Shown: positions 30,626 to 32,998 of the stretch, piece by piece | Layout of the letters: every line of letters starts with the position of its first letter | Position numbering within the stretch: the first letter of the stretch is position 1 | Source: Solirubrobacterales bacterium | GTDB lineage: Bacteria; Actinomycetota; Thermoleophilia; Solirubrobacterales; Solirubrobacteraceae | Length of the DNA: 34,339 nt | Assembly: GCA_019239445.1 (NCBI GenBank) | Contig: JAFAZV010000270.1 | Location: 1 to 34,339, forward strand | Reading direction: 5' to 3' | The notes under the pieces: generated by a model | What the model was told of the DNA's origin: nothing | The model's database searches: none | Seen by the model: the letters and a program-made list of their open reading frames with translations, nothing else | Program-made: the position numbers and the translations under genes

Positions 30626-31366
30626 TCACGGGCTGAAGACCCGGATGCCCGCCGCGCGCCGGTAGACGAGCCACGTCACCAGCGCCAGCCCAGCAGCTCC
30701 GAGCAGAGGTGCGACCAGGCTCGTCTTCAGCAGCAGCGCTCCGATCAGCGCCCCAGCGAGCATCGCGATCACGGCGCTCGAGCGGCGCGGTGATCCTGCG
30801 CCCGATCCGCCGAACAGGCGCGAATCGGCGGCCAGGGCGGTGAGAGTCATGGTGAGCACGGTGGTGGTCAGGTCCGCGACCCCCATCCGGCGCACGGTGG
30901 CATTGCGAACGCCCATCGCCAGGGCCAGCGCAGCGATGAGAACGTAGCCCGTGACCCGCCCTGGTTGAACCGCGACAATCCCTGCGACGATCGCGCAGCC
31001 GGCTGTGAGGCTCGCCTCGATGATCAGCGCGATGGCGACGTGCACCGGCTGACGATCCGGATACGCCTTAGCCAGCGCGCCTCCAGCGGCCGCCCCAAAG
31101 ACGAAGGCGGCCAGAGAGATGATCGGCGCGAGGACGGGCAGCCCCTGGATGTTTGCGAGGCCAAAGCCGAGCAACACGACGTTGCCGGTCATGTTGGCGG
31201 TGAACACCCGGCCCAGGCCGAGATAGCTGACCGCGTCAACGAGGCCGGTGGTGAAGGTGAGCAGCAACAGAGCCCAGGCCAGGGGATGGCGCACGGTGGC
31301 GGCGGCACGGCGAAGCGCGCCCTCGTCGAGGCGCGATGGATCAGGAGCGCTGGCGCTACCGTTCAT
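30626..31366 (-). CDS. YoaK/DUF1275 family membrane protein
   Basis: Protein of 246 aa. The N-terminal LLLLTFTTGLVDAVSYLGLGRVFTANMTGNVVLLGFGLA is the DUF1275 signature, followed by several more spans (LISLAAFVFGAAAGGALA, VAIALIIEASLTAGCAIVAGI, VLIAALALAMGVRNATVRRMGVADLTTTVLTMTLTALA, MLAGALIGALLL). Transport function is suspected for the family but not shown. A strong GGAGG lies 6 nt before the ATG. It converges with the TMEM175-like gene 9 bp away. Confidence 0.87.
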   Translation of the reverse strand: MNGSASAPDPSRLDEGALRRAAATVRHPLAWALLLLTFTTGLVDAVSYLGLGRVFTANMTGNVVLLGFGLANIQGLPVLAPIISLAAFVFGAAAGGALAKAYPDRQPVHVAIALIIEASLTAGCAIVAGIVAVQPGRVTGYVLIAALALAMGVRNATVRRMGVADLTTTVLTMTLTALAADSRLFGGSGAGSPRRSSAVIAMLAGALIGALLLKTSLVAPLLGAAGLALVTWLVYRRAAGIRVFSP

Positions 31367-31530: not shown

Positions 31531-31575
31531 TTAAAAAGCCGGCGGGGCGGCCCGTCCAAAAGCCGCCCCGCCGGT
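31531..31575 (-). terminator. Strong intrinsic terminator, minus strand
   Basis: A 13-bp perfect GC stem (CCGGCGGGGCGGC and its complement) with a 10-nt loop is followed on the minus strand by a TTTTT run (plus-strand AAAAA at 31533-31537). The plus strand has no T-run after the stem, so the direction is clear. No protein gene lies just upstream on the minus strand, which points to a non-coding transcript or a DUF1275 leader. Confidence 0.75.
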
Positions 31576-31598
31576 CAGGTTGCGAACCGAGCCACCGG

Positions 31599-31656
31599 AG
31601 GTAGGGGAAGGGAGGTTCGGCCCGCGAAGCGGAACGTCACCAAGGTAGGGGAAGGG
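31599..31656. repeat. 14-nt direct repeat pair AGGTAGGGGAAGGG
   Basis: AGGTAGGGGAAGGG occurs exactly at 31599-31612 and 31643-31656, each within a hairpin loop of the candidate small RNA. On the plus strand it is purine-rich and Shine-Dalgarno-like; on the minus strand it is C-rich. Confidence 0.85.
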
Positions 31657-31699
31657 TGACTGCCCCGCTGGACCCGGAAACGTAGCGCTTCTGGGAGAG

Positions 31700-31735
31700 T
31701 TGCGTAAACTTTTTTCCGAAATTCTTCTGTAATCG
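31700..31735. promoter_or_regulatory. AT-rich probable promoter region between the sRNA and rpsB
   Basis: TTGCGTAAACTTTTTTCCGAAATTCTTCTGTAAT stands out as the most AT-rich stretch nearby. It may carry the rpsB promoter (TGTAAT as a -10 on +, about 100 nt before the start) and/or the sRNA promoter on -. Hexamer matches are weak in both directions. Confidence 0.4.
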
Positions 31736-31831: not shown

Positions 31832-32994
31832 GTGGCTCAAATCGGAATCAAGGAGCTGCTGGAGGCCGGCGTGCATTTCGGCCACCAGACGCGCCGCTGG
31901 AACCCCAAGATGCGCCGCTTCATCTTCGGTGAGCGGGACGGCATCTACATCATCGACCTACTGCAGACGCAGGAGCTGCTCGACAGCGCGCAACGCTTCG
32001 CCTCGACCGTCGCTCATCGGGGCGGGACCGTGCTGTTTGTCGGGACCAAGAAGCAGGCCCGCGACGCGATCGAGGAGACCGCGCGCGCGGCCGACATGCC
32101 CTACGTCAACCACCGCTGGCTCGGCGGGCTGTTGACCAACTTCCAGACCATCTCGCTGCGGATCAAGCGCCTGCACGACCTCGAACGCTACGAGACCGAA
32201 GGGCAGCTGCAGCTGCTGCCGACGCGCGAGCGAATGGCCGCGCAGGCGGATTTGGAGAAGCTGCGCGCCAACCTCGGCGGCGTGAAGAACATGCAGCGCG
32301 TGCCGGACGCCGTGTTCGTGATCGACCTGAAGACCGAGGCGATCGCAGTACGCGAGGCGCAGCGGCTGCGCATCCCGATCATCGGGCTGGTCGACACGAA
32401 CTGTGACCCCGACGGGATCGAATACGTGATCCCCGGCAACGACGACGCGATTCGCTCCTGCGGCGCGATCACGCGCGCGATCGGTGACGTGGTGGCGCAG
32501 GGACACAATGTGTTCCGCGAGGAGGAGGAGCGCGCGCGGATCGAGCGTGAGCGCCAGGAGGCCGAGGAGCGGGCGCGCCAAGAGGCTGAGCAGCGGGCTC
32601 GCCAAGAAGCCGAGGAGCGGGCTCGGCAGGAGGCCGAGGAACAGGCCCGCCGTCAGGCCGAGGAGGCTGCCGCCGCGGCTGCGGCTCCGGCCGAGGCAGC
32701 GCCCGCGGCTGCGGCTCCGGCCGAGGCAGCGCCCGCGCCCGCGGCTCCGGCCGAGGCAGCGCTCGCCGCGCAAGCCCCGGCGCCGGTCGCCGAACCGGCG
32801 CTACCCGCAGCCGAAGCGCCGGCGCCACCAGCCGCCGAAGCCGAGGCGCCACCACCGCTCCAGCCCGAGCCTACACCCAGTGAGGCGCCGGCCGGTGGCC
32901 AAGACGCCTCCGGCGCGCAGCCCGCGCCCGAACCCGCGTCCGGCGCCCAAGCCGCGCCCGAACCCGCCACCCCCGCCAGCCGAGAGGAGCAGGC

Positions 32995-32998
<4 letters not shown>
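31832..32998 (+). CDS. rpsB: 30S ribosomal protein S2 with long C-terminal extension
   Basis: S2 of 388 aa, against about 250-300 usually. Residues 1 to ~228 are ordinary S2: IGIKELLEAGVHFGHQTRRWNPKM, FVGTKKQARDAIEE, MPYVNHRWLGGLLTNFQTI, PDAVFVIDLKTEAIAVREAQRL, IIGLVDTNCDPDGIEYVIPGNDDAIRS. After VFREEEERA comes a charged helical repeat (EAEERARQ units) and then about 110 residues rich in Ala, Pro and Glu. GTG 31832 follows AAGGGAG. The tail is repeat-coded at the DNA level (see repeats). The stop overlaps tsf (ATGA). Confidence 0.95.
32558..32660 (+). repeat. 24-nt tandem repeat coding EAEERARQ in rpsB
   Basis: About four units encode QEAEERARQEAEQRARQEAEERARQEAEEQARRQ, a charged 8-residue repeat expected to form a long single helix or coiled coil at the S2 tail. 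Confidence 0.75.
32671..32760 (+). repeat. 30-nt tandem repeat coding Ala/Pro-rich units in rpsB
   Basis: Three consecutive 30-nt units end in GCGGCTCCGGCCGAGGCAGC (32671-32700, 32701-32730, 32731-32760) with few differences, encoding AAPAEAAPA-type blocks. Such a repeat can expand or contract by slippage. Confidence 0.85.

What the first reader, a model, noticed from the sequence alone, without database searches (positions are those of the whole stretch)
31531..31690. Candidate C-rich-loop small RNA on the strand opposite rpsB
An excellent minus-strand terminator has no protein gene to end. Before it are two hairpins presenting the identical 14-nt CCCTTCCCCTACCT, complementary to purine-rich ribosome sites. 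This is the layout of 6C-type regulatory RNAs but the loop sequence differs, so it could be a divergent member or a new class. It could also be an attenuated leader of the DUF1275 gene.
Basis: partly seen in the sequence, partly recalled or inferred. Interest (0 to 1): 0.68.

Follow-up and report, generated by a model that had tools for sequence, protein, structure and literature searches.

The report
New C-rich-loop small RNA beside rpsB
Between two housekeeping genes of soil bacteria of the order Solirubrobacterales lies an uncatalogued small RNA that holds out one or two identical C-rich loops, probably to grab and silence messenger RNAs, much as the unrelated actinobacterial 6C RNA does.

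Summary
On the minus strand (about 31671-31533) two hairpins each present CCCTTCCCCTACCT, followed by a 15-bp terminator. The element is conserved in about 40 of 232 Solirubrobacterales genomes, in two families, always between rluD (convergent) and rpsB (divergent). Hairpin 2 shows compensatory changes at 8 of 13 pairs (0 of 500 shuffles reach this). Hairpin 1 keeps its stem while its arm sequences differ almost completely. G-U wobbles (37 cells against 3 A-C) assign the RNA to the minus strand. Every intact copy has CGCAAG-N16-CGTT ending about 10 nt before the first stem (one mismatch in the window): a promoter-hairpin(s)-terminator unit of about 90-140 nt. Distant members have only one C-rich hairpin. 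The DUF1275-leader idea is rejected: DUF1275 is not next to the element in relatives. It is not a detectable 6C RNA: no RF01066 match even at E=10, the C-loop hairpins are separate from the terminator, and 6C itself is found in only 1 of 232 genomes of the order. No Rfam 15 family matches. Best reading: a new trans-acting sRNA family using C-rich loops. Structure and strand are shown by comparison; promoter, expression, targets and mechanism are inferred. Target searches gave no signal.

The parts
31699..31704 (-). Upstream promoter element CGCAAC (family consensus CGCAAG)
   Evidence: At this position the consensus letters occur in 32-35 of 35 aligned rows (one row is a non-family hit); next-best site in the window scores 11.1 against 21.9
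31679..31682 (-). Downstream promoter element CGTT, exactly 16 nt from the upstream element; start site predicted about 8 nt further, at the foot of hairpin 1
   Evidence: CGTT in every family row with fixed N16 spacing; start site inferred
31533..31671 (-). Predicted small RNA, about 139 nt
   Evidence: Comparative anatomy; ends inferred, not measured
31628..31669 (-). Hairpin 1; C-rich loop at 31642-31654
   Evidence: 14-pair stem in fold; 15 distinct inner helices among 16 relatives; own-arm duplex -20.2 against -13.2 kcal/mol for swapped arms
31582..31625 (-). Hairpin 2; loop CTTCCCCTACCTCC at 31597-31610
   Evidence: R1 match E 9.5e-13 in own genome; covariation on 27 distinct sequences
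31533..31574 (-). Intrinsic terminator: 15-bp stem plus U5
   Evidence: stem conserved in most relatives, U-tract variable
31705..31710 (+). Probable rpsB -10 box TAAACT, abutting the upstream element of the small RNA promoter
   Evidence: Conserved in relatives with and without the RNA; inferred
31832..32998 (+). rpsB (ribosomal protein S2), divergent neighbour
   Evidence: Pfam PF00318 E 2.2e-90

Best explanation
The element is a stand-alone small RNA gene (about 139 nt here, about 90 nt in one-hairpin relatives) of a previously uncatalogued family. It is transcribed away from rpsB from its own promoter (CGCAAG-N16-CGTT) and ends at an intrinsic terminator. Its one or two stems are scaffolds that hold an unpaired C-rich loop (core UUCCCCUAC, usually CUUCCCCUACCUYC). 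The loop most likely base-pairs with G/A-rich stretches at or near ribosome-binding sites of several mRNAs and blocks their translation, with duplicated loops giving redundancy or avidity. Shown by comparison: conservation, strand, structure, open loop, promoter-like element, synteny. Inferred: that it is transcribed, that it acts in trans, that it represses, its targets and its inducing signal.
For: Conserved in relatives (24 of 101 by BLAST; 34 of 232 by covariance model, one of these not at this locus). Covariation of H2: 97.4% of cells paired, 33 double-changed cells against 5.8 in shuffles, 0/500. H1 arms turn over almost completely while the stem and loop persist. 37 G-U against 3 A-C cells fix the RNA strand as minus. 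The loop core is unpaired (probability about 0.87-1.0) in nearly all predicted transcripts. The promoter-like element has fixed spacing in all intact copies and sits just before the first stem in both the one- and two-hairpin forms. A scan for the promoter element alone recovered divergent copies that the RNA model missed (G406, G029, G403, G059, G039), with further copies seen in G404 and G407. Synteny rluD> <RNA | rpsB> wherever both flanks are on the contig; the window alone has extra genes before rluD. Known analogues act through C-rich loops: B11/6C (PMC10470900) and sX13 (PMC3771888).
Against: No transcript data. No target signal: exact GGTAGGGGAAG sites in four genomes carrying the RNA rarely precede a plausible start codon, and counts are similar in genomes without the RNA. 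Loop pairing with the rpsB and tsf ribosome sites is no better than shuffled. U-tracts are weak in several relatives. The RNA is absent from most genomes of the order, so it is dispensable. The sigma factor is unidentified: no matching promoter near 30 of 42 sigma-factor loci of G009.
Confidence: 0.68

Rival explanations
1. Divergent member of the 6C (RF01066) family.
For: Same phylum, two hairpins with C-rich loops, intrinsic terminator; 6C itself is nearly absent from this order (1 of 232 genomes), so the RNA could be its local descendant.
Against: No RF01066 match up to E=10 with permissive filters or in own and order genomes. In the 6C hits seen, the second C-rich loop caps the terminator stem; here the terminator is a separate third hairpin. 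The loop sequence is UUCCCCUACC, not at least six C, and one-hairpin members exist.
Confidence: 0.08
2. Cis-acting element only: transcription of the RNA from a promoter overlapping the rpsB -10 box interferes with rpsB transcription; the RNA itself is a by-product.
For: The upstream element abuts the probable rpsB -10 box in most members; synteny with rpsB is invariant.
Against: Does not explain why 9-14 loop nucleotides are nearly invariant while stems covary, or loop duplication. In the second family the rpsB -10 sequence at that position is lost, yet CGCAAG stays.
Confidence: 0.1
3. Protein-binding RNA: the C-rich loops sequester an RNA-binding protein, as GGA hairpins of CsrB/RsmY do for CsrA.
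For: Repeated identical loops in stem-loops, one or two copies.
Against: No C-rich-loop-binding titrated protein is known to me in this lineage; only 1-2 sites per RNA. Not tested.
Confidence: 0.08
4. Attenuated leader of the downstream DUF1275 gene.
For: In the window a DUF1275 gene follows on the same strand (30626-31366).
Against: In relatives the RNA is followed by rluD on the opposite strand; the gene is a local insertion.
Confidence: 0.02

Closest known systems
6C RNA / B11 (RF01066), Actinobacteria
   Same: Small stable RNA with two hairpins presenting C-rich loops, intrinsic terminator, Actinomycetota; B11 can repress through either loop, and G-tract targets are reported (PMC10470900)
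   Different: No covariance-model match; loop UUCCCCUACC instead of a C run; C-loops separate from the terminator; one-hairpin forms; fixed rluD-rpsB locus; own promoter-like element
sX13 (Xanthomonas)
   Same: Several stem-loops with C-rich (4C) loops that repress mRNAs with G-rich motifs at ribosome sites, independent of Hfq (PMC3771888)
   Different: Proteobacterial, three loops, no sequence or locus relationship seen
Intergenic palindromic repeats of the Streptomyces group (CCTTCCCCTACCTTCGGTGGGGAGGCCCC)
   Same: Share the 20-base string CCTTCCCCTAYCTYCGGYGG
   Different: Dispersed in and between genes, the C-rich part pairs with a G-rich arm, no promoter element, different loci; probably coincidence or convergence

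Membership tests
6C RNA (RF01066) | Scores above the Rfam gathering threshold with the family model | tested here: not met
   No hit at gathering in the window or in 20 relatives; not among matches up to E=10; none in own genome
6C RNA (RF01066) | Two stem-loops with C-rich loops of at least six C | tested here: not met
   Two C-rich loops in most near relatives, but the longest C run is four (UUCCCCUACC); many members have one hairpin
6C RNA (RF01066) | Second C-rich loop caps the terminator hairpin (as in the hits) | tested here: not met
   Terminator is a third, separate hairpin
C-rich-loop regulatory small RNAs (functional kind) | C-rich stretch held unpaired in a conserved stem-loop | tested here: met
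C-rich-loop regulatory small RNAs (functional kind) | Stand-alone gene with own promoter and terminator | tested here: inconclusive
   Conserved promoter-like element and terminator hairpin, synteny excludes a leader role; no transcript data
C-rich-loop regulatory small RNAs (functional kind) | Loop pairs with G-rich mRNA sites and regulates them | tested here: inconclusive
   No enriched or conserved target sites found; experiment needed
Leader / attenuator of DUF1275 | Regulated gene conserved downstream on the same strand | tested here: not met
   rluD convergent in relatives

The most novel reading that the evidence does not exclude
A dedicated (alternative-sigma or regulator-controlled) promoter that overlaps the rpsB promoter makes this RNA, so one event both lowers transcription of the rpsB-tsf-pyrH operon and releases an anti-Shine-Dalgarno-like loop RNA (H2 loop contains ACCUCC) that damps translation of a set of mRNAs: a growth-to-stress switch that stands in for 6C in a lineage lacking it.
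Probability: 0.13. Interest if true: 0.75.

Novelty: new member of a known kind. Interest (0 to 1): 0.5.

Why it matters
My literature searches found no small RNA work on Solirubrobacterales, which are abundant soil actinobacteria. This is a clean, syntenic, covarying RNA family not in Rfam 15, in an order where 6C is almost absent. It suggests that C-rich-loop regulators arose more than once, and it gives a compact system (one or two loops, defined promoter-like element) for testing how loop number and sequence set target choice.

Tried and rejected
Rfam at gathering and relaxed thresholds: nothing. RF01066 across phylum and order: no match to this locus. Phylum-wide R1 search: no convincing homologue outside the order; a class-level weak hit (G571, E 4e-4) is a terminator-like hairpin after a phoU-like gene, not this locus. 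Streptomyces matches to the 20-mer are other repeats. Regulon of the promoter element in the own genome: 20 sites against 24 reversed-pattern controls, no signal; no matching promoter near 30 sigma-factor loci of G009. Target search with GGTAGGGGAAG: no difference between genomes with and without the RNA; hits are mostly not at start codons. Loop against rpsB and tsf ribosome sites: not better than shuffled. DUF1275 leader: rejected by synteny. Literature: no small RNA work found for Solirubrobacter or Conexibacter.

Full report
What is there. On the minus strand, 31533-31704, the order is: CGCAAC (31704-31699), 16 nt, CGTT (31682-31679), hairpin 1 (31669-31628), hairpin 2 (31625-31582), terminator stem (31574-31539) and U5 (31537-31533). 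Both loops carry the identical CCCTTCCCCTACCT. The 12-mer core is found twice, and only there, in the window, against 0.03 expected with one mismatch. The fold is more stable than shuffles (z -3.35).

Conservation. A BLAST search of 101 relatives finds it in 24. A covariance model of hairpin 2 (R1) finds the two copies at this locus and nothing else convincing in the own genome, and matches 34 of 232 genomes of the order. One of those, G294, is a weak match without rpsB or rluD nearby. Named relatives are Solirubrobacterales, Solirubrobacteraceae and Thermoleophilaceae MAGs. Outside the order nothing convincing was found in 347 phylum genomes or 399 class genomes. Scanning rpsB-upstream regions of genomes that R1 had mostly called negative, with a weight matrix of the promoter element alone, found further divergent copies (G005, G406, G029, G403, G059, G039); G404 and G407 were then seen by eye. 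In each the element is followed by a hairpin with a C-rich loop. Many other relatives have rluD and rpsB close together with no RNA, so the gene is patchily present.

Structure and strand. On 27 distinct H2 sequences 97.4% of cells pair, 8 of 13 pairs show changes on both sides, and 33 double-changed cells compare with 5.8 in shuffles, 0/500 reaching the observed value (the alignment was fitted to the structure, but the MAFFT alignment of 16 sequences agrees). There are 37 G-U cells and 3 A-C cells; on the plus strand these would be 37 mismatches, so the RNA is the minus strand. H1 is even more telling: 15 distinct inner helices in 16 sequences, own-arm duplex energy -20.2 against -13.2 kcal/mol for swapped arms, while the loop stays near UUCCCCUACC. 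The loop core is unpaired with probability about 0.87-1.0 in nearly all predicted transcripts. Members of the second family and some genera of the first have a single hairpin.

Promoter. All intact copies carry CGCAAG-N16-CGTT, each consensus letter in 32-35 of 35 rows (one row being a non-family hit), ending about 10 nt before the first stem. The spacing was fixed in my scan, but the copies were first seen by eye in an unconstrained alignment. The second A of a sigma-70 type -10 box is not conserved, and CGTT with fixed spacing recalls ECF-type promoters; this is inference. Scans for a regulon and for promoters near sigma-factor genes gave nothing. The rpsB -10 box (TAAACT, 31705-31710) abuts the element.

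Context. Wherever the flanks are on the contig, the RNA lies between rluD (convergent) and rpsB (divergent). The DUF1275, TMEM175 and cupin genes between rluD and the RNA in the window were not found next to it in relatives. This rejects the DUF1275 leader model.

Mechanism. By anatomy it works like B11/6C and sX13, which use C-rich loops against G-rich mRNA sites. The H2 loop also contains ACCUCC, identical to the anti-Shine-Dalgarno core (own knowledge). Tests for targets were negative or uninformative: trans-acting repression is the likeliest but unproven function.

Known or new. No Rfam 15 family matches the window or 20 relatives. RF01066 does not match even at E=10, and 6C itself is seen in only 1 of 232 genomes of the order. 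It is a new family of a known kind (C-rich-loop small RNA), not a member of 6C by the tests available.

Noticed in passing
window:31709-31831 (+): The rpsB 5' leader is conserved across the order: GC-rich outer stem, internal loop CCCUG opposite U, inner stem (e.g. GCGGCCCTGCCCGG...CCGGGTCCGCG), then AAGGGAG. It looks like an uncatalogued S2 autoregulatory leader; no Rfam match. Only a rough alignment was made, and its automatic consensus fold was weak.
   Followed up: partly
L088, L095, L098, L100, L103, L105, L106, L107, L112, L114, L116, L117, L119, L120, L125: Streptomyces-group genomes carry a dispersed palindromic repeat CCTTCCCCTACCTTCGGTGGGGAGGCCCC, between genes and apparently inside some, sharing 20 bases with the RNA loop region but folding differently.
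   Followed up: partly
L324 (G571:C160:1096-1131): A terminator-like hairpin GACCCGGGCCTTCCCCTACCAGGCCCGGGTC after a phoU-like gene in another family of the class has a similar C-rich loop.
   Followed up: no
L323 (G314:C194:534-608): Single true 6C RNA hit (75 bits) in the whole order; may be a contaminant contig or a rare acquisition.
   Followed up: no
window:29372-31366: Cupin, TMEM175-like channel and DUF1275 genes lie between rluD and the small RNA in this genome; relatives lack them at this spot.
   Followed up: partly
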